The position numbers and the translations under genes are program-made. The notes below the pieces were generated by a model. That model saw only the letters and a list, made by a program, of their open reading frames with translations. It did no database searches and was not told the origin of the DNA. From Patescibacteria group bacterium (GTDB lineage: Bacteria > Patescibacteriota > Patescibacteriia > UM-FILTER-42-10), in the NCBI GenBank assembly GCA_018825385.1, contig JAHJEX010000056.1, positions 1 to 42,611 of the forward strand: a stretch of DNA of 42,611 nt. Reading direction: 5' to 3'. This document shows, piece by piece, positions 341-41,890 of the stretch (position 1 is the stretch's first letter; each line of letters starts with the position of its first letter).

Positions 341-841
341 TCATCTGCAAAGATGCTTTTGTGCGTCAATGAATCTCTCGGCGGTCGTGGTCTGTATGGA
401 AGAGGCAATTACGATTTCGATTTCCAATTCGAAGATGGTATAGAGAACCTTGAATAGTTCATCGAGTATAGTCCTGTTTATACCATCTGCATCTTCGCAG
501 ACCATGAATACTTTACCGCTGAATATGATCTCGAAGTATATCAGGTTTTTGCGTCGGGCTTCGTTGTTTGCGACGATGACGCGTAGTTTCAACGGATTGG
601 ATCCGTTCACCAGATACCAGGCCAGAGCTTTGCAGAAATATTCCTGCGGATAGAAAAGATCGATGCTCCAGTTCGGGATGGTGCTGTCCTCAGGAACAGC
701 TAGATCGAAAGGGTGCTTTTCCAGTGGAGTTGCCAGACCGAGAAGAGCCGGCTTAACAGAACCGGCCGCGGAATCTAGAAATTGCTGAAATCCTTCCAAC
801 GCATGAAGATCTTTCAGTTTATCAGGTGCATCTTCCTGCAT
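341..841 (-). CDS. Hypothetical protein (166 aa)
   Basis: ORF with AAGGAG-type SD on minus strand, TTGACA promoter near 915-890 and downstream terminator. Confidence 0.7.
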   Translation of the reverse strand: MQEDAPDKLKDLHALEGFQQFLDSAAGSVKPALLGLATPLEKHPFDLAVPEDSTIPNWSIDLFYPQEYFCKALAWYLVNGSNPLKLRVIVANNEARRKNLIYFEIIFSGKVFMVCEDADGINRTILDELFKVLYTIFELEIEIVIASSIQTTTAERFIDAQKHLCR

Positions 842-999
842 TACACACTCCTTTCTTGAAAGTGAGAATACCTGATGGCTTGGACTTTATCACTACTGTT
901 TGTCTTTGTCAAAACAAAAACACCAAATTGACTATTATTCTATGGAATAAAAAAACCACCGAGTATTGTCCTCAGTGGGGGCAGAAAAGAGCGGTTTGC

Positions 1000-1308
1000 C
1001 TAGGTGTCCAGCTCGACCAGTTTCACTTCCATGGGAAGACCCGACATTACGTCGTCGGTCAGGCTGGTGAACCATTCTCCGTCTTTCAAATCCAGCATCC
1101 GACTGTACTGTTCGAAATTCTTCCCCCAGAGGTGAATCTGGATCTGTCCGTCGGGCGGCATCACGCTGCGCTGCCGGACGAAGGTTTCCACCACCATGCT
1201 GTTCGGAAAGGTGACACGCACGCGGGACGCTACTTCAGGTACATTGTCGGGAAAAACATTGTCTGGCATGATGGCCCTTTCGGATAGGGTTTTGCTCAGC
1301 ATCGGCAT
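1000..1308 (-). CDS. Hypothetical protein (102 aa, start uncertain)
   Basis: Minus-strand ORF with upstream TTGACA-N17-TATCCT and downstream hairpin/T-tract. The ATG at 1271 is an alternative start. Confidence 0.6.
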   Translation of the reverse strand: MPMLSKTLSERAIMPDNVFPDNVPEVASRVRVTFPNSMVVETFVRQRSVMPPDGQIQIHLWGKNFEQYSRMLDLKDGEWFTSLTDDVMSGLPMEVKLVELDT

Positions 1309-2573: not shown

Positions 2574-3041
2574 TCATTTGGGGGCAAGTTCGTGCCTCTC
2601 TTGCGAGCGGGGTTCAACCTGCCTGGGGTTTTCGCCGATCTGCTCAGCGAAGATCTGGACTACTTCCGGCGGACACTCGACGGGCGTGTGAACCACCCGG
2701 TCGATGGCGTACTGCATGGAGCGACGGTGAACGTAGAAATCGATCTGCTGGCAGGAGAACTCACCGGGTTTGTAGAGGTCGGGGCGCGAGATGTGGGTCT
2801 GGAGGTCGAAGTATTCGAGTTCATCCACCTCCACATGTTCGCTGTAGCCGACCGCGCTGATGATTTCACCAGCAATCCGGATGCTGTCTCCACGATGCGA
2901 ATTCTTATCCCATTCCTCGAAGGTGTTTATGCTTGTGAAATGGCACTTGCCGTCGATGACTACGTAAAGAACGCGTTGTTTCATGCGTCCGATCGTGATA
3001 CAGATCCAGAATTCCTTCAGCGGGCTTTTGGCTGAATCCAT
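2574..3041 (-). CDS. Hypothetical protein (155 aa)
   Basis: ORF with AAGGAG SD, terminator GACCCG..CGGTC-TTTTTTT at 2574-2540 and upstream TTGACA box. Confidence 0.65.
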   Translation of the reverse strand: MDSAKSPLKEFWICITIGRMKQRVLYVVIDGKCHFTSINTFEEWDKNSHRGDSIRIAGEIISAVGYSEHVEVDELEYFDLQTHISRPDLYKPGEFSCQQIDFYVHRRSMQYAIDRVVHTPVECPPEVVQIFAEQIGENPRQVEPRSQERHELAPK

Positions 3042-3268
3042 TGGCTCAGACTCCTTGCATTGCCCAAACTTAGACGACTAATCTAATAATCAGGCCCTGT
3101 TAAAAAGAGCATTAGTTTAAATACGTTATCAATAATAAGCCTGTGTGTCAATTCTTGGCTATAATTTAGCACGAAAGTCAATTTTAGCTATTGGCAAAAA
3201 CACCAAGTTGACTATTATTCTATGCAATAAAAAAAGCGCCAATCGATTAAAAAACAAATGTGTACGTG

Positions 3269-5069: not shown

Positions 5070-5468
5070 TTAAAGGGAGCGAATCCGCGGAGAGCGATCG
5101 GTGTCGTACATTTCCTCTCTGGTGTAAGGTTTTCCCCAGAAGATAAAGGGGATTAGGCCAAAGAGCATAATGGCCAGAACCTCAGGGAATGGGTACAGGG
5201 GTCCCAGGAACCACTTACCAATTGCAAGCAGTGATCCCAAATAGAAGATGCCTAGAATCATCCTCAGTCCGTGGTTGTGGTTGCGTTCTGTGGCGATGCG
5301 AATCGCTACAAACAGGAACGGGAAGGCAGTAGCACGGGCCACGATCCAGCACGAAGCGAGGTAGTTGTGGCCCCACTTGTAGGCTGGGTATGATGCCATC
5401 GTGCTTACGAGGATAAGGAATAAAAAGAATCTGATACAAATCCTTTTCATTTGATCCGACATGACCAC
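5070..5468 (-). CDS. Hypothetical multi-pass membrane protein
   Basis: Several hydrophobic segments; SD GAGAGGAG; promoter TTGACA-N17-TATTAT on the minus strand; terminator ACCGTTTC..GAAGCGGT-T6. ATG at 5462 is the more likely start. Confidence 0.7.
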   Translation of the reverse strand: MVMSDQMKRICIRFFLFLILVSTMASYPAYKWGHNYLASCWIVARATAFPFLFVAIRIATERNHNHGLRMILGIFYLGSLLAIGKWFLGPLYPFPEVLAIMLFGLIPFIFWGKPYTREEMYDTDRSPRIRSL

Positions 5469-5620: not shown

Positions 5621-5968
5621 CTAGGCCCTTTGAACCTTGTACAGTTCATACACATCGAGGTGTACGGAACAAACGCTCTGCGGGTCTCGGAGTAGCACCT
5701 GGATGTGCCCACCCACCGATGCTATTGCGGGACTGAACATGACCAGCCCTTTACCCTTCTCCGCCGAGTTTTTGGGGAAGCGCCACTTGCCCGAGGAGGT
5801 CTGGTGCAAGCGCACCATCATCGGCTGGACACAGGCACTGTGAATATCCTTGGGCGGGTTGAAGCGAGGCATGGGTCGGTGAAAGAACTGGACGGCTTCT
5901 GGTGGCACATGGATGATGTCACCGGGATTGATGGAAAACGTGTGTGGATGATGATGCGGGTCGTTCAC
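5621..5968 (-). CDS. Hypothetical protein, GTG start (MNDPHHHPHTFSINPGDIIHVPPE...)
   Basis: SD AAGGAGG precedes GTG at 5968. The ATG at 6043 overlaps the -10 box of TTGACA-N18-TATAAT. Confidence 0.65.
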   Translation of the reverse strand: MNDPHHHPHTFSINPGDIIHVPPEAVQFFHRPMPRFNPPKDIHSACVQPMMVRLHQTSSGKWRFPKNSAEKGKGLVMFSPAIASVGGHIQVLLRDPQSVCSVHLDVYELYKVQRA

Positions 5969-6206
5969 GACTGGTCCTCCTTGAAAGGGTGGCAGAGCCT
6001 GACATGTTTCTGATACCTTTCTGACCATCAACAAGTTTTTCATTATAGAGGAATTTCGTCATATATGTCAATATAATGCTTTTCACTATGCAGAAATAGA
6101 GAAAAAAATGTTTTGTGATCTGTCAGACTATTAGCTTTAGAGTTCTTTGTTTCTAAAAAAAAGACCCATGTTTTTGATAACAGAGGAGTCAACTGTTTGT
6201 TAGAGT

Positions 6207-10398: not shown

Positions 10399-10755
10399 TT
10401 AATAATATCGATAAGGGCGCATTTTATTTCCGCATTGACTACAGATGACCACCTGTACCGACGGCCGGTTTCCAACCTGAATGGTTCGGGTGGGGTTGGG
10501 GTAGTAGCGGCACTTGGAACATGCCCCGTCGCGGTATTGTGTTCGGCTGAGGAGATTGTACTCCCGCAAGGTCAGATCGGGCTGCCCTTTGAGAGATTTT
10601 TGCCTCTTTGCCCTACCTTCGGGAAGAACATACTGGCCAGATTGACCGCATTCCGCGAGGCGGCGCAGCTCTTTCCTCTTTTCCTCGGCGGTCAGGCCGA
10701 GGCGATTCAGAGCAATGCACATGCGGCGTCTGTATTTTCTGCGCCCTTTAGACAT
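10399..10755 (-). CDS. Basic zinc-ribbon hypothetical protein
   Basis: CSKC...CSQC pair; TTGACT-N17-TATTGT promoter; AGGCC..GGCCT-T7 terminator. Confidence 0.65.
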   Translation of the reverse strand: MSKGRRKYRRRMCIALNRLGLTAEEKRKELRRLAECGQSGQYVLPEGRAKRQKSLKGQPDLTLREYNLLSRTQYRDGACSKCRYYPNPTRTIQVGNRPSVQVVICSQCGNKMRPYRYY

Positions 10756-13560: not shown

Positions 13561-14613
13561 CTAGAAAATACCCTTTTCTCGAAGCCATTCCAGTATCACC
13601 GGTTCGATCTGCCTACGCAGAGACTTGTTGGCATAGCCACACCAGTGTACGGGAGTATGAACATCCATTGGTGGACAAAGCTCATTGCCTAGCCCATCAG
13701 TAATGATTACACCAGCTTTCTGAGCGATTGTGATCCCTGCAACATCATATGGGTGACATTCTAGACCGCGCACTTTCTGGTTGGTCTCTTTTTCTAGAAT
13801 CTGGTAGAACAGTGGACGAAGATCACAGCAGAAACGATCATGTCCCAATATCAACTCAACCATCTGACCGGCGGTCGAGATGTACTGATCCTCAAAGACT
13901 AGTGCAGATCCTTCTTCTTGATCGCCCAGAGTTTTGGAAACAATCCGTTCCATTAACTCAGAAGCTAGTACCTTAGTGCCAGGAAAGAAGTTAGCAACCT
14001 GGGCAAAACCGTACTGCAAACTGGTGGCTGTACTAGGAACAGCCTTGATTTTAGAAACAGTTTCACTATTTATGTCTTTCTGGAGTGTCCGAATGCCTCT
14101 AGCGTTGCTTTGAGTAATAAAGATGGATCTTGCAGTTTGGCGACTGGGTGGAATTTCAAGCATCATAGAGACAACAGCATCTGCAACACTGGTTTCGGGT
14201 CCCAGATTTGGAGCAACGGCAGCAATAAACCATGCAGACCGCTTGTCATACATGATATTGCGAGTGCCATCGATTGGATCAATAATCAATCGCCACTTAG
14301 GTTTCGATTCTTTCGGACCAAAACACATGATACCATTCTCGCCTAATCCTTCGCATATCAGGATTAGCGGAAACAGTTTGTCAAGATCACCTGATCTTAA
14401 CCAGCTATTGATCTGAACCAGAATTAGAGGTTCCACTTCCCGGTCGATAGCAAAAATGGTGTCGCCTCCGGCGAAACCAATGGCTTTGCGAAGTGACTCT
14501 TGATCGCGCTGTTGCGACCTTTGTATGTTCCTGACAACTGTGTTTCCAAGATCTGACAGTCGCCAGATCCAGCTGCCGATGTCAGTGGCACTTATGTTGG
14601 GCTGGCGAGTCAT
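13561..14613 (-). CDS. Inositol-monophosphatase-family protein
   Basis: WRLIIDPIDGTRN and YDVAGITIAQKAG motifs; SD GAGGAGG; terminator AACCTTTC..GGAAGGTT-T5. Confidence 0.85.
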   Translation of the reverse strand: MTRQPNISATDIGSWIWRLSDLGNTVVRNIQRSQQRDQESLRKAIGFAGGDTIFAIDREVEPLILVQINSWLRSGDLDKLFPLILICEGLGENGIMCFGPKESKPKWRLIIDPIDGTRNIMYDKRSAWFIAAVAPNLGPETSVADAVVSMMLEIPPSRQTARSIFITQSNARGIRTLQKDINSETVSKIKAVPSTATSLQYGFAQVANFFPGTKVLASELMERIVSKTLGDQEEGSALVFEDQYISTAGQMVELILGHDRFCCDLRPLFYQILEKETNQKVRGLECHPYDVAGITIAQKAGVIITDGLGNELCPPMDVHTPVHWCGYANKSLRRQIEPVILEWLREKGIF

Positions 14614-14804: not shown

Positions 14805-15236
14805 TTAGCACCGCAGGGGGTGCCAGGTGCAGGTGCCGGTGGCGCCGGCGAGGGTGGCCGTCGTCGTATAGTTGGCCGTCACATCGAAACTGCTCATGCT
14901 CAATTCCACGTATGAGTTCACCATCAGCGCCGAAGCGCTGGCGGGAAGAACCCCGACGTAGTTACGAGATCCCTTCGCCCGCAGGTAGAAATGGGTATCG
15001 GAGGTGTTGATGACGAAGCCGGCCGTCGCGGAGATCGCGCCGTCGTTCACATATGCGGCGGAAGAGCTCGTGAGGCCGAGGCCCTCGGCGCCGGCGTTGG
15101 CGTCCAGGGTGGTGATCGTCGGGATCGTTGCGGAGATCGATTGTATTGAAGAGAACTCGTTGGCGCTCGCTGTGAGCGGCGGGATCAGCATGATCCCGAG
15201 CACGACGAGCGCGAGCAGGACATTGAGTCGTCTCAA
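14805..15236 (-). CDS. Secreted hypothetical protein (signal peptide)
   Basis: MRRLNVLLALVVLGIMLIPPLTASA signal; SD AACAAGGAGG; TTGACA-N17-TAAGAT promoter; terminator CCCCCAT..GTGGGGG-TA-T7. Confidence 0.75.
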   Translation of the reverse strand: MRRLNVLLALVVLGIMLIPPLTASANEFSSIQSISATIPTITTLDANAGAEGLGLTSSSAAYVNDGAISATAGFVINTSDTHFYLRAKGSRNYVGVLPASASALMVNSYVELSMSSFDVTANYTTTATLAGATGTCTWHPLRC

Positions 15237-17536: not shown

Positions 17537-17632
17537 ATGATGAGGACTCTTCTGCACATCATTTTGATGTTCATCAGCGACTTCTCCTTCCTGTCCGATC
17601 GGGACCAGGAAGAGATGGGCGTGGACGTCTAG
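17537..17632 (+). CDS. Small ORF, 31 aa, MMRTLLHIILMFISDFSFLSDRDQEEMGVDV
   Basis: GGAGG 4 nt before the first ATG (7 nt before the second); lies in the transcript defined by promoter and terminator. Confidence 0.55.
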   Translation: MMRTLLHIILMFISDFSFLSDRDQEEMGVDV

Positions 17633-17666
17633 CAGGTTAACCTGCGACTGACTTCGGTCGGTTTTA

Positions 17667-17697
17667 GGGGCAGCTACTTCGGTATTTCTGCCCCTTT
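17667..17697 (+). terminator. Intrinsic terminator
   Basis: GGGGCAG-CTAC(TTCG)GTATTT-CTGCCCC-TTT. Confidence 0.8.
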
Positions 17698-17830
17698 AAA
17701 TTTGTCTGAATATATTGATCTTGTTAGAATCAGAAATTCAACAGAATTGACAACAAACTAATTTTTTCGTAAGGTAAATTACCGTATCCACTGATGGATC
17801 ATTGAAAATGAGCCTTAGGAAGGAGGCAAA

Positions 17831-18016
17831 GTGACTCGCAGAAAAAGGAAGAAGATCGGAAGAAGAACTGCTGATAATCAGGAGAATGGTCCGATGAGTG
17901 ATAGTACCATGCTTGCTTGTCTTGTGTGGATTGCAATAATCCTAGCTGTTATTTTCAGCGGAAGGACAGATGAGCAAAGAGACGGTGCTGGCAGTCAGAT
18001 CGAGCAGCAAGAGTAG
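17831..18016 (+). CDS. Small single-pass membrane protein (GTG start)
   Basis: SD GGAGG before GTG; hydrophobic stretch MLACLVWIAIILAVIF; TTGACA-N17-TAAGGT upstream. Confidence 0.65.
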   Translation: MTRRKRKKIGRRTADNQENGPMSDSTMLACLVWIAIILAVIFSGRTDEQRDGAGSQIEQQE

Positions 18017-18053
18017 CGTGCGGAAAGTCCGTACATTCAGGAAGGACCTCAAA

Positions 18054-18950
18054 ATGTCACGATTAATCACCTGTGCCTTTATCGGTGGAACCGGTATGGG
18101 TACACTGTTCGGAGATCTGGGATTCAAAACTGGAGGACACCGGAGCATTAAGACGCCCTACGGCGATGAAGTGATGTACACCATCGTCCGGCGCGGTGAC
18201 CTTGCCTTCGTGGCGATTGACCGGCACTACTCAACCGGCAATTTTCGTCAGGCGGATCAGCTGGACCATCGAGCATACATGTATGCTCTTTGGAAGGTGA
18301 ACCAGTTTTTTCCCAGTGTGTTCAACATCCAGTACATCTTCAGCACATCCGCGGTCGGCGGTTTACACAATACCCGTCACGTCCAGGACGGTTTGGAATT
18401 GGGGGATATTGTGGTCCCCCATGACGTGAAGGACTTCACTCGGGGAGTGTGGAGTTACTCTGTCAAGGATCGCTATGTGCATCCCACGGCGTTCCACCGG
18501 TCAGCCAACGGCTTGTTCTGTCGGCATCTCCAGCAACTGCTTCAGGAGAACGAACAGGTGAAATTCGGTGGCGTGCTGGCTTGCGCGATTACGGGTCCGC
18601 TGTACGAGACTCCGGTCGAGATCGTTGAATTTACCCGTCATGGCATCTTCAATCTGCTCGGTATGCAGACGGTAACACCAGAGGCGTACTACGCTCGTCA
18701 GAACAGCATGCATCTGGCAGTGGCTTGTGTGGTCACGGACACGCCGGACGTGGAACATGATGTGGACGGCGAAGAAGTTGCCCGGATCATGAACTTACGG
18801 AAGCCTCTTCTGGCTGATCTGTTCGTGACTGCCATGCTGGATGTACAGGACATGGCTGGATTCAAGTGCTCGTGCACCAAAAAGCTGCCTGTGTTCCACG
18901 AAGACCTGGCTGGTGATCCGGCGGATGTAATGGGTATGCCTGTAGACTAG
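18054..18950 (+). CDS. Purine nucleoside/5'-methylthioadenosine phosphorylase family protein
   Basis: FIGGTGMG, DRHYSTG, ITGPLYETPVEI, LGMQTVTPEAYYAR motifs. ATG 18054 has SD AGGAAGGA. Confidence 0.85.
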   Translation: MSRLITCAFIGGTGMGTLFGDLGFKTGGHRSIKTPYGDEVMYTIVRRGDLAFVAIDRHYSTGNFRQADQLDHRAYMYALWKVNQFFPSVFNIQYIFSTSAVGGLHNTRHVQDGLELGDIVVPHDVKDFTRGVWSYSVKDRYVHPTAFHRSANGLFCRHLQQLLQENEQVKFGGVLACAITGPLYETPVEIVEFTRHGIFNLLGMQTVTPEAYYARQNSMHLAVACVVTDTPDVEHDVDGEEVARIMNLRKPLLADLFVTAMLDVQDMAGFKCSCTKKLPVFHEDLAGDPADVMGMPVD

Positions 18951-29320: not shown

Positions 29321-29533
29321 ATTCGCAGTCTTGCATATTTATCTAGCTGTGCTAAAATAAAAACAAAGGTAGATAAGATTATGGGGGCGTCCAGTTCTTG
29401 CGACGGCTCGTTTTGTTTTTTGGAAAGATAAACTCCGCCAAACTAAAACAAAATACCCGCGAAGATGTTTATGCAGCGACGGCGCAAATAAGTGTGGACA
29501 AATATTTAAAGGTCGAACAATAATTATTAATAA

Positions 29534-30139
29534 ATGATTATTAACAATAAGACTATGCCTAAATTAATAGTTCTTAATAATAAAAATCGAAAAATAATAC
29601 CAATCCTGCTAATATTTGAACTGGCTTTTATATTTTTTCCTCATAGTGATTCAAAGGCATATACTTATGGAGGTCAAAAATGGAGTAATGGTAAAGCAGG
29701 TTATTATCTTGATATAGCAGGATGGGATCCAACTTTGATTGTGTATCCGGCGCATACTTGGAATGATGCTGGGTCGCCGTTCAGGTTCAATTTCAAAGGG
29801 CATAATATATATCACGATAGAGATGGTAAGAATACAGTTACACGTTTTACAATGAATAATAGTAGGCCAGCTGAGACTCGTCTTAGATGGAATGGGAACT
29901 CTCTTTCTGAGGCTGATGTGGTTTTTAATATGCGTTATGGATGGGGATGTTGTGGGGAGCCAAATTTATATGATGTCAAAAACGCAATGACTCATGAGTT
30001 TGGCCACTGGTTAGTCTTACTGGATCAAAACAATCCCTGGGACTATTGGGATACGATGTACAAAACTACTTATCCGGGTGAGACAAGAAAGAGAACACTG
30101 CATAGCGATGATAGGAATGGAATTAATTACATCTATTAG
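29534..30139 (+). CDS. Matrixin-like (M10-type) metalloprotease
   Basis: THEFGHWLVLLDQ zinc-binding motif; hydrophobic N-terminal segment. Confidence 0.7.
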   Translation: MIINNKTMPKLIVLNNKNRKIIPILLIFELAFIFFPHSDSKAYTYGGQKWSNGKAGYYLDIAGWDPTLIVYPAHTWNDAGSPFRFNFKGHNIYHDRDGKNTVTRFTMNNSRPAETRLRWNGNSLSEADVVFNMRYGWGCCGEPNLYDVKNAMTHEFGHWLVLLDQNNPWDYWDTMYKTTYPGETRKRTLHSDDRNGINYIY

Positions 30140-30897: not shown

Positions 30898-31323
30898 ATG
30901 GATCTAAATAAAGTAACAATGATCGGCAATCTAACAAAAGATCCGATCGGCAAAAAAATTGCATCCGGCCAAAGCATTACATATTTTGGCCTTGCAACCA
31001 ATTATTCGTGGAAAGATATAAAAACTAAAGAGCGCAAAGAAAAAGTCGAGTTTCATAACATAATTGCCTGGGGAAGACTGGGCGAGATTGTAACAACTTA
31101 CCTAAAAAAAGGCGACAAAGTATATATCGAAGGCCGATTGCAAAACAGAAAATGGGAAGATGATAAAGGGGAAAAGCGTTCTAAATCAGAAGTAGTGGCG
31201 CAGAATCTGATAATGCTCGGCAAGGCCAGTGCAGTTAAGGAGAAAGTTGGAAATGAAGCTCAGAAACAGAATGCAACAGAAGAAGTAAGTGCAGAAGAGG
31301 TACCAGTTATAGAAGTAGAATAA
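30898..31323 (+). CDS. ssb: Single-stranded DNA-binding protein
   Basis: MDLNKVTMIGNLTKDP, EKVEFHNIIAWGRLGEI, GDKVYIEGRLQNRKWED. Confidence 0.97.
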   Translation: MDLNKVTMIGNLTKDPIGKKIASGQSITYFGLATNYSWKDIKTKERKEKVEFHNIIAWGRLGEIVTTYLKKGDKVYIEGRLQNRKWEDDKGEKRSKSEVVAQNLIMLGKASAVKEKVGNEAQKQNATEEVSAEEVPVIEVE

Positions 31324-31325
31324 TT

Positions 31326-31544
31326 TTATCTCCTCTCCTTGGGGTTCTTCGTAGGCTGAAGGACCTCGAGACAAAGAAGATAAGACGTTGGGCGTTCGAA
31401 ACTGATTGATTTCAGTTTAGACGCTCTTTTCATTTCAAGCCGTTCTCAGATCTTTGAGAACAAAACCTGTCTAAGGAGGTGAAACCATTAAAAGCCCTTT
31501 CTTTGAATCGCAGAAAACGTTTCTCTTAAACAAGGAGTAGTGTC
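31326..31544 (+). promoter_or_regulatory. Structured 5' leader, copy 1
   Basis: 13-bp stem CTTGGGGTTCTTC/GAAGGACCTCGAG; GCGT..AAACTG/CAGTTT..ACGC hairpin followed by TCTTTT; GTTCTCA/TGAGAAC hairpin; AAGGAGG at 31473. Near-identical to copy 2. Confidence 0.8.
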
Positions 31545-32294
31545 ATGAAACGGACACTTTGGATTCTCGGAATGGCCATCTGCATGGTGGCCGTGTTCAT
31601 GGTCGCAGGTTGCGACCAGACGGATTTACCCATGTCGCCGCCAACCGACGAGGTTGTCGTCGATCAGCCGGGGGATGATGGTTTTCTGACTGCTGAGCAG
31701 ATCAACGCTATCGGCCAGAAACAGCATGAAGAGTTTCTGGCAAACGGTGGTGTGCTCCCGCAGCACGACGGAGAAAAGAGCTGGCAGGTTTACGTGCACG
31801 TACCGTTCTATAGCCAAAAAGACTATCACTGGAGTGGTGTTGGTCTTGGATTCAACTATGACGGTAGATCCACAATCGGAAGATATGGATGTCATCTGTG
31901 TTGTGTTTCCATGCTCTATGCTAAATGGGGGTATGGGTCAGAAACAAATCCTCCGAACCTGAACGCGTGGAAGAAGAGGTCTCGTGACCACTACGCCTTT
32001 TCAACTTCAGCGAATGGGGATCTAATCCGACCAACTCAAGCACTGGAGTATCCCTACAATTGTCGTCCTTGGTACACTATCTCCTCGAGCCAGATTTATG
32101 GCGAGTTGAGGCGAGGTCGACCAGTGATTGTGAGGACTACCTATGGGGGGAGCCATTTCATGGTCATTTTCGCCTTTGATGGCCAGCGGTTCTGGGTAAA
32201 GGACCCGCTTAAAGACGGGAATCATCAAAGTGTGCCACTCTACGGCGATGCACACCCGAAAAAACCTTTCCGAGTGTATGGTTATAGCCGATAA
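31545..32294 (+). CDS. Lipoprotein with C39-like (papain-fold) cysteine-peptidase domain
   Basis: Lipobox VAGC; YGCHLCCVSML, GRPVIVRTTYGGSHFMVIFAFD, VKDPL as plausible Cys-His-Asp motifs. Confidence 0.8.
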   Translation: MKRTLWILGMAICMVAVFMVAGCDQTDLPMSPPTDEVVVDQPGDDGFLTAEQINAIGQKQHEEFLANGGVLPQHDGEKSWQVYVHVPFYSQKDYHWSGVGLGFNYDGRSTIGRYGCHLCCVSMLYAKWGYGSETNPPNLNAWKKRSRDHYAFSTSANGDLIRPTQALEYPYNCRPWYTISSSQIYGELRRGRPVIVRTTYGGSHFMVIFAFDGQRFWVKDPLKDGNHQSVPLYGDAHPKKPFRVYGYSR

Positions 32295-32308
32295 GTGGCT
32301 TAGCTTGA

Positions 32309-32346
32309 GGTGTGGGGGTCATAACGATCCTCACACCCATTTTTTC
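32309..32346 (+). terminator. Intrinsic terminator
   Basis: GGTGTGGGGGTC..GATCCTCACACC-CATTTTTT. Confidence 0.8.
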
Positions 32347-32401
32347 AAATAGCGTACCTTTGTTTATATGCTATAATTGAAACGAATTTATTAGTAATAC
32401 T

Positions 32402-33565
32402 ATGGATAAAAAAACGGGAATAATTATATTTGTGCTTCTCACTGTTTTTGTTTTTGGTATTTTCGTGGTGGTATCATTACTAGATGGAGAACGTAATTTG
32501 GAAATGGAGATTAGTAGTATTGAAAATGGAGAAGTTGATGATGAAATTGTCGAAGCTGGTAAAGATCAACATATATTTAGATCTACTGGTATTCGTGATA
32601 ATAACTGGATTCAGTATGTAAGTATTGAATATGATTTCGCAATTGATATACCACGTGAGTTCTATTGTTCTCTTTCACCAGAAGTTCTTTGGGGTGGTAA
32701 CACAGTCTATTGTCTAAGGCCAAACTCCAATTCCTCTAATAGTCAAGACGATCCACTTTTTATTGAAATTTTCTCGACAGGGTATGATTACACACAAAAA
32801 GATGCGTTTGAAAATTGGTATAAAAATGGAATAGAAAAATATTACGCACGTCAACTTGATAAAATTGCTAGCGAAGAATCTCTATTTACATTAACTCATG
32901 AAACAACTACAGGGGGCATTGCTTCATACGTATATTTTCCAACAAAAGAAACTGTGCTAACAATTGGCTCAACAGTTGTCTCAGAGGAAGAGATTCTAGA
33001 AATTGCAAATTCATTTCACTGGAAAGATGAATCACAAATAAGTAATATTAATAATAATTTAAACAGCTCTACTAATGATGAATGGATAACATTTACCGCA
33101 GATGAAATAGACCTCAGATTATCTTATCCCGGAAACTGGAAAAAATATTATGACTATTCCGAAGACTATGGTTTTACACTAGAATTAGAATCTAATATTC
33201 AAGTTTATAATGTTGATCCATTAACAAACCAGGGGGCTGAAGGTCCGTTAATAGAATTTCGTGTCAATAGTCAACCAAACTTTGAAAATTATGTACTAAG
33301 TGATTGGGTTAGTCACTCTTCTGCTGTTGAAGATGAACAAGAAAGAATTAGAAAAGACATTCAGGGGTATATGGGTTACACACAATGGATTTGGCATCAA
33401 AGTAATCCATTTGCGTTTTCTTCCATAAATTATTATGTTGATGTAAACGATGAAATTTGGGAATTTAGAGCAAGTATAAATGATGATAATCCTGAGTCAG
33501 AACAGTTTATAAAATCAAAAAAGATTATAGAGCAAATCTTCGAGAGTATTGAGTTTACAGATTAA
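32402..33565 (+). CDS. Anchored secreted protein with PsbP/Mog1-like domain pattern
   Basis: N-terminal TM; EIDLRLSYPGNWKKY and C-terminal KSKKIIEQIFESIEF patterns shared with ORFs at 35-37 kb. Confidence 0.7.
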   Translation: MDKKTGIIIFVLLTVFVFGIFVVVSLLDGERNLEMEISSIENGEVDDEIVEAGKDQHIFRSTGIRDNNWIQYVSIEYDFAIDIPREFYCSLSPEVLWGGNTVYCLRPNSNSSNSQDDPLFIEIFSTGYDYTQKDAFENWYKNGIEKYYARQLDKIASEESLFTLTHETTTGGIASYVYFPTKETVLTIGSTVVSEEEILEIANSFHWKDESQISNINNNLNSSTNDEWITFTADEIDLRLSYPGNWKKYYDYSEDYGFTLELESNIQVYNVDPLTNQGAEGPLIEFRVNSQPNFENYVLSDWVSHSSAVEDEQERIRKDIQGYMGYTQWIWHQSNPFAFSSINYYVDVNDEIWEFRASINDDNPESEQFIKSKKIIEQIFESIEFTD

Positions 33566-34073
33566 TTCAAAAAATATGAAGCACAAGCTTATCACTATCA
33601 TAACTATCATTGCCAGCTTGTCTATGAGTTTATACGGCGTTGGTGCTAATGCCGCTGTTTCAGATTACGAAGGAAGTATTTTGCTGGATGTGGAGCGTAA
33701 TGGAGAAGCATATTATGTATATCAGGGAGAAAAATACTTCCTTGGTAGACCATGGCAAGCTTTTGAGATAATGCGAAAATTATCGTTAGGAATATCAGAA
33801 GATAATTTCCAGACAGGATTCCAACAAGTAAATGATATCTGGCAGATCTATAGAATAGTAAATATATACTTATTTCCCTACATTCAGGGTAGGATAGTCA
33901 TACGTCCCGAAGCCAATGGAGAAGCTTATTATGTGACCCCCAATCTTGCCGGAGGAAGTGGATATTCTGCTGAGTATCTTGGAAGGCCTTATGATGCATT
34001 TCAGATAATGACAAAGTTTGGACAAGGCACGCAGTCGGCACAAATAGATTCGATTCCAAATGGTACTCTGTAA
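33549..34073 (+). CDS. Secreted protein with two NGEAYYV...LGRPxxAFxIM repeats
   Basis: Internal repeat: RNGEAYYVYQGEKYFLGRPWQAFEIMRKL and ANGEAYYVTPN..AEYLGRPYDAFQIMTKF. ATG at 33576 (MKHKL) is the likely start. Confidence 0.75.
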   Translation: MSLQINSKNMKHKLITIITIIASLSMSLYGVGANAAVSDYEGSILLDVERNGEAYYVYQGEKYFLGRPWQAFEIMRKLSLGISEDNFQTGFQQVNDIWQIYRIVNIYLFPYIQGRIVIRPEANGEAYYVTPNLAGGSGYSAEYLGRPYDAFQIMTKFGQGTQSAQIDSIPNGTL

Positions 34074-34104
34074 ATAATATCTGTTTAGACTAAGCAAAAT
34101 ACAA

Positions 34105-34323
34105 TTATCTCCTCTCCTTGGGGTTCTTCGCAAGATGAAGGACCTCGAGACAAAGAAGATAAGACGTTGGGCGTTCGAAACTGATTGATTTCAGTTTAGA
34201 CGCTCTTTTCATTTCAAGCCGTTCTCAGATCTTTGAGAACAAAACCTGTCTAAGGAGGTAAAACCATTAAAAGCCCTTTCTTTGAATCGCAGAAAACGTT
34301 TCTCTTAAACAAGGAGTAGTGTC
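34105..34323 (+). promoter_or_regulatory. Structured 5' leader, copy 2
   Basis: Aligns to 31326-31544 with no indels and about 4 substitutions, three of them in one hairpin loop. Confidence 0.8.
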
Positions 34324-34935
34324 ATGAAACGGACACTCTGGATTCTCGGATTGGCCATCTGTACGGTGGCCATGTTCTGGGTCACGGGCTGTGACCAGAC
34401 GGATTCACCCATGTCGCCGCCAACCGACGAGGTTGTCGTCGATCAGCCGGGGGAGGAGGGGGCACAGGTAGAGAAATCTGCCTTGTCGAATTACTGGCGT
34501 TCCGCTGTCTACCGCGAGATCTGCTACGCGCTTTCCCGCGTACGCTACAATGCCGGTGATTGGGGTGCTTCTACCCGAATCTACCACGGATGGTTTGCCG
34601 GTGACTGGGACTACAGTAACCGAAGCAACATCATCGGGTGGGGTGGCGAATGTAAACAGTTCGCACGTGAAATCGTCTGGCGGGCGACTGGTCAGAACTG
34701 TCTTCCGACTAGTTACTACTACGCTAATGGTGACATTGCTTGGTGCCGTCCTGGTGATGTGATCCAGCGCAGGCCTCCTAATCAGCACACGGCCATCGTT
34801 TTCAAAGTGTTGGCTCGTGATTCACATGGTCGTGCGACGAAGATCGATGTCATCGATAGCAACTACATCCGGTATCACACGATCGGCAGGCACGTCCTGA
34901 GTGGCAGTACGCTTTCCAAGTACAAGGTTTGGTAG
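34324..34935 (+). CDS. Lipoprotein with CHAP/NlpC-like cysteine-hydrolase domain
   Basis: Lipobox VTGC; GWGGECKQFAREIVW (Cys), GDVIQRRPPNQHTAIVF (His), IDSNY. Confidence 0.75.
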   Translation: MKRTLWILGLAICTVAMFWVTGCDQTDSPMSPPTDEVVVDQPGEEGAQVEKSALSNYWRSAVYREICYALSRVRYNAGDWGASTRIYHGWFAGDWDYSNRSNIIGWGGECKQFAREIVWRATGQNCLPTSYYYANGDIAWCRPGDVIQRRPPNQHTAIVFKVLARDSHGRATKIDVIDSNYIRYHTIGRHVLSGSTLSKYKVW

Positions 34936-34940
34936 TCCTC

Positions 34941-34989
34941 TGTGGTCGATACGGCTCATTACGAGCTAGTATCGGCCACATACTTTTTT
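34941..34989 (+). terminator. Intrinsic terminator
   Basis: TGTGGTCGATACGGCTC..GAGCTAGTATCGGCCACA-TACTTTTTT. Confidence 0.85.
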
Positions 34990-41290: not shown

Positions 41291-41890
41291 GTGAAGAAGC
41301 AAATAGTCTTTGTCGGTGGCATCCATGGTGCTGGCAAAAGCACTAATTGCCACGCTCTGTCCGTCCAGCACGGTTGGCGTGTAGTGAAGCAGCGCAGGCA
41401 ACTGATTAGTGTGGGAGCGGAACATGGTATATTGTGGCCTGAAGTGGCAAGTAGACATGACGAACTGATTCCGCATGTTGCTGATCGGTTGTTGGATATG
41501 TTAAGACAGTCTGCAGAGGCAGTCTTACTGGTTGATTGCCACTATGCAATTCCGACTTCTGCTGCGCTGAGAACACGCCACTGCACCGGCTGTTATATGC
41601 CGAATCTTGACTGGAATCTGGTAGAACGTGTTAAACAAGAGCACTGGTGCAGGTTTGTCCTTCTAAAAGTTGACCCTGCAATAGCTTTAGCACGCATCAT
41701 GGCTAGACCAGAAGCTACCCATTACGTGAATACGCTGAGACATTTCGTAGAAGAAGCAGTTGCAGAAAACGAAGTATTTCAGCGTTTACTTGCTCATTTT
41801 TCGGTACAATTCAGCGACTGTATTATCCTGGAAGCTATAAATTCCAGGCAAACAGTTTCTATGCTGGATAGGTTTATTTGCTCTACTTAA
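41291..41890 (+). CDS. P-loop kinase/ATPase-like protein (GTG start)
   Basis: VGGIHGAGKSTNCHAL Walker A; SD AGGGAGG; terminator downstream. Confidence 0.7.
   Translation: MKKQIVFVGGIHGAGKSTNCHALSVQHGWRVVKQRRQLISVGAEHGILWPEVASRHDELIPHVADRLLDMLRQSAEAVLLVDCHYAIPTSAALRTRHCTGCYMPNLDWNLVERVKQEHWCRFVLLKVDPAIALARIMARPEATHYVNTLRHFVEEAVAENEVFQRLLAHFSVQFSDCIILEAINSRQTVSMLDRFICST

What the first reader, a model, noticed from the sequence alone, without database searches (positions are those of the whole stretch)
31326..34935. Duplicated structured leader and lipoprotein signal carrying two different cysteine-hydrolase domains (modular surface-effector cassette)
Seen: 31326-31678 and 34105-34457 align with no indels. 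The untranslated 219 nt differ at about 4 positions while the first roughly 134 coding nt differ at about 14, so the leader is more conserved than the signal peptide. Homology stops after the shared linker (TDEVVVDQPG). One mature protein then looks like a C39-type peptidase and the other like a CHAP/NlpC-type hydrolase. Each ends in its own terminator. Inference: a common export/anchor/regulatory front end with interchangeable catalytic modules, possibly for host-surface or cell-wall interaction in an epibiotic lifestyle.
Basis: partly seen in the sequence, partly recalled or inferred. Interest (0 to 1): 0.85.

Follow-up and report, generated by a model that had tools for sequence, protein, structure and literature searches.

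The report
Shared leader, swapped surface wall-cutting enzymes
A tiny bacterium of the ABY1 group (Patescibacteria) carries two neighbouring genes with almost the same RNA leader and membrane-anchor signal but two unrelated predicted wall- or peptide-cutting enzymes behind them, and several distant relatives do the same with their own leaders, so front ends and enzymes appear to be exchangeable parts.

Summary
31326-31678 and 34105-34457 align without gaps: 4/219 leader differences (three in one hairpin loop) and 13/134 coding differences; homology ends just after the linker. The mature parts are unrelated: Peptidase_C39_2 (Pfam E 2e-9) and a CHAP-like Cys-His domain (no Pfam hit; weak Foldseek CHAP hit; conserved Cys110/His155/Asp178/Asn180). 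The leader DNA occurs only twice, both here (389 class genomes searched).

The arrangement recurs in the class. G044, G064 and G142 each have two genes sharing their own leader plus N-terminus in front of different domains (M23/CHAP-like, CHAP-like/divergent CHAP-like twice). In a Komeilibacteria-type family the spot behind one ssb holds C39 subtype A, C39 subtype B, M23 or no enzyme.

Many of these leaders share a layout: hairpin(s), boxA-like element, extended Shine-Dalgarno without nearby start codon, then the real SD and ATG (10/13 genera versus 4/75 control upstream regions). The genomes encode NusB and LspA.

Best reading: exchangeable lipoprotein front end (leader, lipid anchor, linker) carrying probable envelope hydrolases, expressed through a NusB/S10-type leader. 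Anatomy is shown; leader mechanism and enzyme target are inferred. Novelty: new variant, closest to Mycoplasma vsp/vpma families.

The parts
31326..31544 (+). Leader, copy 1 (219 nt)
   Evidence: direct repeat with 34105-34323, 4 differences
34105..34323 (+). Leader, copy 2 (219 nt)
31338..31370 (+). Hairpin 1 (14-bp stem, 5-nt loop); 3 of 4 leader differences lie in the loop
   Evidence: folds
31390..31426 (+). Hairpin 2, followed by T-rich TTTTCATTT
   Evidence: folds
31442..31461 (+). Hairpin 3, containing the boxA-like AGATCTTTGAGAA (31448-31460; 34227-34239 in copy 2)
31473..31482 (+). Extended SD-like AAGGAGGTGA (SD1), no ATG/GTG/TTG 4-14 nt downstream; copy 2 at 34252-34261 reads AAGGAGGTAA
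31487..31540 (+). Possible 17-codon leader ORF starting at ATT, its TAG next to SD2 (speculative)
   Evidence: read from sequence
31531..31537 (+). SD2 CAAGGAG of the coding sequence (copy 2: 34310-34316)
   Evidence: read from sequence
31545..31678 (+). Shared coding front end, copy 1: lipoprotein signal (VAGC) and linker TDEVVVDQPG
34324..34457 (+). Shared coding front end, copy 2: lipoprotein signal (VTGC) and the same linker
31545..32294 (+). Lipoprotein gene 1: mature part Peptidase_C39_2 (249 aa; candidate Cys116, His204, Asp220)
   Evidence: Pfam PF13529 E 2e-9; alignments
34324..34935 (+). Lipoprotein gene 2: mature part CHAP-like (203 aa; Cys110, His155, Asp178/Asn180)
32309..32345 (+). 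Intrinsic terminator of gene 1
34942..34989 (+). Terminator-like hairpin and T run of gene 2
   Evidence: read from sequence; not called by the scan
30898..31323 (+). ssb directly upstream of copy 1; one of two ssb paralogues; its neighbourhood holds lipoprotein or secreted hydrolases in several relatives
   Evidence: Pfam SSB 2.3e-33

Best explanation
The two genes are members of a class-wide set of single-gene units encoding surface lipoproteins in ABY1 Patescibacteria. Each unit is leader + lipoprotein signal + short linker + one hydrolase domain (C39_2, CHAP-like or M23) + terminator. Within a genome the front end is re-used: a new enzyme domain is joined behind the resident leader and signal by recombination in or after the linker, or front ends of neighbouring units are kept alike by gene conversion. 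Inferred mechanism: the transcript begins with hairpins and a boxA-like element that would bind NusB and S10 and carry RNA polymerase through the structured leader, as in rRNA leaders; an extended SD without its own start codon would hold a 30S subunit on standby before initiation at the second SD. The protein is exported, lipidated at the lipobox Cys (LspA is encoded) and held on the outer face of the membrane, where the domain probably cuts peptidoglycan or peptides. Shown: repeat, domain swap, recurrence, leader layout, presence of NusB and LspA genes. Inferred: NusB/S10 binding, 30S standby, lipidation, enzymatic activity, substrate.
For: Repeat and its limits; unrelated mature domains; CHAP-like alignment with conserved Cys/His/Asp/Asn and a CHAP domain as top, though weak, PDB fold hit; three more within-genome pairs sharing leader + N-terminus over different domains: G044 228 nt 82%, M23 vs CHAP-like; G064 579 nt 84%; G142 324 nt 75%; ssb-linked spot with C39 A, C39 B, M23 or no enzyme among 18 ssb loci of one family; hydrolase near this ssb paralogue in G001, G066, G123, G029, G151, G142; boxA + SD1 joint score raised in lipoprotein leaders (17/22 leaders, 10/13 genera, vs 4/75 other upstream regions; p 3e-11 and 5e-8); SD1 without nearby start codon in 18/22, and the 16S 3' end is GGATCACCTCC; rRNA leaders of several of these genomes contain CTTTGACAATT (by eye); NusB and LspA in all 8 genomes tested.
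Against: The boxA/SD1 motif was noticed in these leaders before it was scored, with published consensuses but no clean hold-out set; of three C39 genes scored later, one fits (G184) and two do not (G151, G277). The copy-1 boxA matches 10 of 13 positions and lies inside hairpin 3. Some leaders lack the motif (G142, G123 CHAP, G002). rRNA boxA in these genomes differs from the consensus at its 5' end. No expression data. PG hydrolysis is inferred from family names; the C39 model failed.
Confidence: 0.5

Rival explanations
1. Ordinary partial gene duplication: a segment from leader to linker was copied once in front of another secreted-protein gene. The leader is just a transcript leader, conserved because the copy is recent, with no special regulation.
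For: Only two copies exist in this genome; high identity; no Rfam family.
Against: Differences are very uneven (about 20% in the signal core, under 2% in leader and linker) and three of four leader changes sit in a hairpin loop; the same arrangement arose with unrelated leaders in three other genomes.
Confidence: 0.25
2. Front ends kept alike by repeated gene conversion or site-specific recombination through the leader, as in Mycoplasma vsp/vpma, so that surface enzymes are switched or exchanged between copies.
For: Conserved 5' UTR plus signal peptide with unrelated remainder is the hallmark of vsp/vpma (PMC2268961); the copies are direct repeats 2.8 kb apart.
Against: No recombinase gene noticed in the window, no inverted copies; each gene has its own complete leader, so both could be expressed; population variation cannot be seen in one MAG.
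Confidence: 0.2
3. Independent single-gene insertions (mobile cassettes): G+C-rich units with leader and terminator inserted at hot spots such as behind ssb.
For: C39 and CHAP ORFs are 51 and 55% G+C in a 40% window; filled (L040) and empty (L039) ssb sites differ by a unit flanked by AGATAATTA on both sides.
Against: No recombinase, recombination site or terminal inverted repeat was recognised at the ends (not searched with dedicated models); a 9-nt flanking repeat in one AT-rich site may be chance or mark a deletion; the G349 unit is 37% G+C.
Confidence: 0.2

Closest known systems
Mycoplasma vsp/vpma variable surface lipoprotein families (PMC2268961)
   Same: 5' untranslated region and signal peptide conserved across family members; the rest of the coding sequences largely unrelated; surface lipoproteins
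   Different: there 6 (vpma) or 13 (vsp) genes switched by a Xer-type recombinase acting in the 5' UTR, and antigens rather than predicted hydrolases; here two genes, hydrolase domains, no recombinase seen, each gene with its own leader
BoxA-controlled mRNA leaders such as suhB (PMC5725501) and rRNA leaders
   Same: boxA-like element in the 5' leader; a hairpin upstream in several leaders; NusB encoded
   Different: targets are surface hydrolases; followed by an extended SD without a start codon; binding not tested; match to consensus imperfect
CHAP, C39_2 and M23 peptidase families
   Same: Pfam hits for C39_2 and M23; CHAP-like conserved Cys-His-Asp/Asn and top weak fold match to a CHAP lysin domain
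   Different: single small domain on a lipid anchor, no wall-binding repeats seen; the CHAP-like group has no Pfam hit and the window member no NCBIfam hit

Membership tests
Peptidase_C39_2 (PF13529) | profile score above curated cut-off | tested here: met
   38.6 bits vs cut-off 24, residues 86-221
Peptidase_C39_2 (PF13529) | catalytic Cys, His and Asp | tested here: inconclusive
   His204 and Asp220 invariant; Cys116 in the GC motif present in the window protein and most relatives but absent in the G349 relative
CHAP domain | profile score above curated cut-off (Pfam/NCBIfam) | tested here: not met
   no family hit
CHAP domain | papain-like fold with Cys on the helix and His on a following strand | tested here: inconclusive
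   model pLDDT 72; Cys110 at the start of helix 110-122, His155 at the start of a strand; best PDB match CHAP 9eum, E 0.08
Bacterial lipoprotein | signal peptide with lipobox Cys and an LspA-encoding genome | tested here: met
   VAGC / VTGC at Cys23; LspA E 7e-27 in own genome
boxA (NusB/S10) antitermination leader | boxA consensus in the leader | tested here: inconclusive
   10 of 13 positions in this window, 11-12 in several relatives; joint motif enriched
boxA (NusB/S10) antitermination leader | NusB encoded | tested here: met
boxA (NusB/S10) antitermination leader | binding of NusB/S10 and effect on termination | not testable with these tools
   needs experiment
vsp/vpma-type variable lipoprotein family | shared 5' UTR and signal peptide, unrelated remainder | tested here: met
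vsp/vpma-type variable lipoprotein family | adjacent site-specific recombinase and on/off switching | tested here: inconclusive
   no recombinase recognised when reading the ORF list of the window, no dedicated profile search run; switching not testable

The most novel reading that the evidence does not exclude
ABY1 Patescibacteria use an rRNA-leader-like device (hairpin, boxA, extended SD without a start codon) as a common regulatory front end for exchangeable surface hydrolases, tying production of wall-cutting enzymes to the Nus/ribosome machinery, and this front end is a recombining module that captures new catalytic domains.
Probability: 0.3. Interest if true: 0.8.

Novelty: new variant of a known kind. 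Interest (0 to 1): 0.58.

Why it matters
How reduced, mostly uncultured Patescibacteria diversify and control the enzymes on their surface is largely unknown. A recurring front end marks surface hydrolases that domain databases miss (the CHAP-like group has no Pfam hit) and gives a testable regulatory element. A boxA-type leader on surface enzymes would extend Nus-factor control beyond rRNA, suhB and similar genes.

Tried and rejected
Rfam: no family for the leader. Leader DNA in 389 class genomes and one pattern in viral contigs: nothing outside this genome. C39 relatives in viral contigs: none; the CHAP alignment was too diverse for such a scan. Phage origin: no support. PDB by sequence: none. 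AlphaFold of the C39 protein: pLDDT 40, not used further. Rejected: homology of hairpin 1 with the hairpin after ssb in Komeilibacteria; that hairpin also occurs at ssb loci without a lipoprotein gene and has a different loop. Rejected as general rule: leader always more conserved than signal peptide. The ATT-started leader ORF is kept only as speculation; most SD1s have no start codon behind them. Pairing of the 5' end UUAUCUCCU with SD1 or SD2 is possible here but was not seen in the relatives folded.

Full report
What is there. The window is contig C66 of a 1.27-Mb, 90-contig MAG. The closest C39 relatives in named genomes are Komeilibacteria, Kerfeldbacteria and unnamed Patescibacteria, so the organism belongs to the ABY1 class (that placement is my reading of the names). 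Two segments, 31326-31678 and 34105-34457, are copies without indels. The leader differs at 4 of 219 positions, three of them in the five-base loop of a 14-bp hairpin, and the start of the coding sequence at 13 of 134, mostly in the hydrophobic core of the signal peptide. Similarity ends right after the linker TDEVVVDQPG.

The two proteins. Both have a lipoprotein signal with the lipobox Cys at position 23, and LspA is encoded in the genome. Protein 1 continues into a Peptidase_C39_2 domain. Protein 2 has no hit in Pfam, NCBIfam or PDB sequences but has relatives in other genomes of the class. Their alignment keeps Cys110 (GGxC[KR] in most), His155 (H-T-A-[ILV] in most), Asp178 and Asn180. The AlphaFold model (pLDDT 72) matches a CHAP lysin domain first, weakly (E 0.08), with another lysin third. 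I call it CHAP-like, not CHAP. The mature parts of the two proteins show no relation to each other by BLASTP or by profile comparison, which aligns only the signal peptides.

The arrangement recurs. Three other genomes of the class, from two other families, each hold two genes with their own shared leader + N-terminus over different domains. G044: 228 nt at 82%, M23 peptidase (E 2e-19) and CHAP-like. G064: 579 nt at 84%, CHAP-like and a second, divergent CHAP-like. G142: 324 nt at 75%, two divergent CHAP-like proteins, one of them with an in-frame stop. The leaders of these genomes show no overall sequence similarity to the one in the window (a search of the class with the window leader found none). 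In a Komeilibacteria-type family (18 ssb loci) the place behind this ssb holds C39 of subtype A (L040, L045, L054), C39 of subtype B (L038, L048), an M23 protein (L051) or, in most, no enzyme. In G001, G066, G123, G029, G151 and G142 a lipoprotein or secreted hydrolase also lies within a few kb of this ssb paralogue. In the window the cell-wall cluster (mraZ, mraW, a penicillin-binding protein, a Mur ligase) is nearby; in G001 a PBP and a Mur ligase lie near the CHAP-like gene and ssb; in G064 a Mur ligase lies next to the pair.

The leader. In the window it reads: hairpin 1 (31338-31370), hairpin 2 (31390-31426) followed by a T-rich stretch, hairpin 3 holding a boxA-like sequence (31448-31460), an extended SD AAGGAGGTGA (31473-31482), about 50 nt, SD2 (31531-31537) and ATG. 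The fold is more stable than shuffles (z = -2.8). In relatives with unrelated leader sequence the order boxA-like, then AAAGGAGGTGA-like, then 50-150 nt, then SD2-ATG recurs: GTTCTTTGACACATCAACAATGGAAGGAGGTGATCC in G044 and TGTTCATTGACAAAACCAAAGGAGG in G174 are examples. A joint score built from the boxA consensus of E. coli/B. subtilis type and the 16S complement is 18 or more in 17/22 leaders (10/13 genera) against 4/75 other upstream regions from the same loci. In this window the two lipoprotein genes have the highest score of the genes scored. SD1 has no start codon 4-14 nt behind it in 18/22 leaders. NusB is present in all eight genomes tested. The rRNA leaders of several of these genomes contain CTTTGACAATT behind a hairpin (read by eye).

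Caveats. The motif was noticed in the same sequences in which it was scored; three C39 genes scored later gave one positive and two negatives. Controls came from the same loci but are not matched for leader length. The leaders are not fully independent of each other. Genomes are MAGs. Nothing here shows expression, binding or activity.

Comparison. Works like: Mycoplasma vsp/vpma, where the 5' UTR and signal peptide are conserved and the rest is not (PMC2268961). It is not shown to be a member of that kind, because no recombinase or switching was found. The leader works, if the inference holds, like boxA-controlled mRNAs such as suhB (PMC5725501). Literature searches found no description of either feature in Patescibacteria, within an open-access library only.

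Verdict. The host-surface (epibiont) role remains a guess; wall remodelling of the cell itself is equally possible.

Noticed in passing
window 341-841(-), 1000-1308(-), 2574-3041(-), 5070-5468(-), 5621-6043(-), 10399-10755(-), 13561-14613(-), 14805-15236(-), 17541-18950, 41291-41890: Many short G+C-rich (about 0.45-0.62) single-gene islands in an otherwise mostly 33-40% G+C contig, several with a TTGACA/TATAAT-like promoter and their own terminator; origin unclear.
   Followed up: partly
L040 (filled) vs L039 (empty), behind ssb: The filled site has AGATAATTA on both sides of the lipoprotein unit; the empty relative has it once. Five filled Komeilibacteria sites also carry AGAAAAGCGATTTTT-like sequence upstream of the unit, resembling the first codons of the LTD-domain gene that follows ssb in empty genomes.
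   Followed up: partly
L039, L041-L044, L047, L049, L052, L055 intergenic after ssb (also L038, L040, L045, L048, L054): A hairpin with a conserved GCCTGT loop follows this ssb paralogue in nearly all Komeilibacteria-type genomes seen, with or without the lipoprotein gene; possibly a conserved 3' RNA element.
   Followed up: no
window about 29330-29533; G002 (L117) upstream of 4616; G066, G123, G029 leaders: Upstream of the M10-like protease gene at 29534 lies a GCGACGGCTCG... / TGTGGACAAA arrangement resembling that upstream of the G002 C39 lipoprotein; DnaA-box-like TGTGGA[TC]A occurs in several of these upstream regions.
   Followed up: no
window 915-960 and 3195-3240: Near-identical 46-nt repeat (91%) with a palindromic TTATTCCATAGAATAA core next to terminators of two G+C-rich island genes.
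   Followed up: no
window 33576-34073 and L114 2365-2895(-): A secreted protein lying between the two lipoprotein genes has a relative beside the G044 lipoprotein pair (shared DYEGxILLDVERNGEAYY), so neighbours may be conserved too.
   Followed up: no
L051 2188-3360: M23 peptidase with a Por-type C-terminal sorting domain (PF18962) behind a Komeilibacteria-type ssb; that sorting signal is typical of other phyla, suggesting transfer.
   Followed up: no
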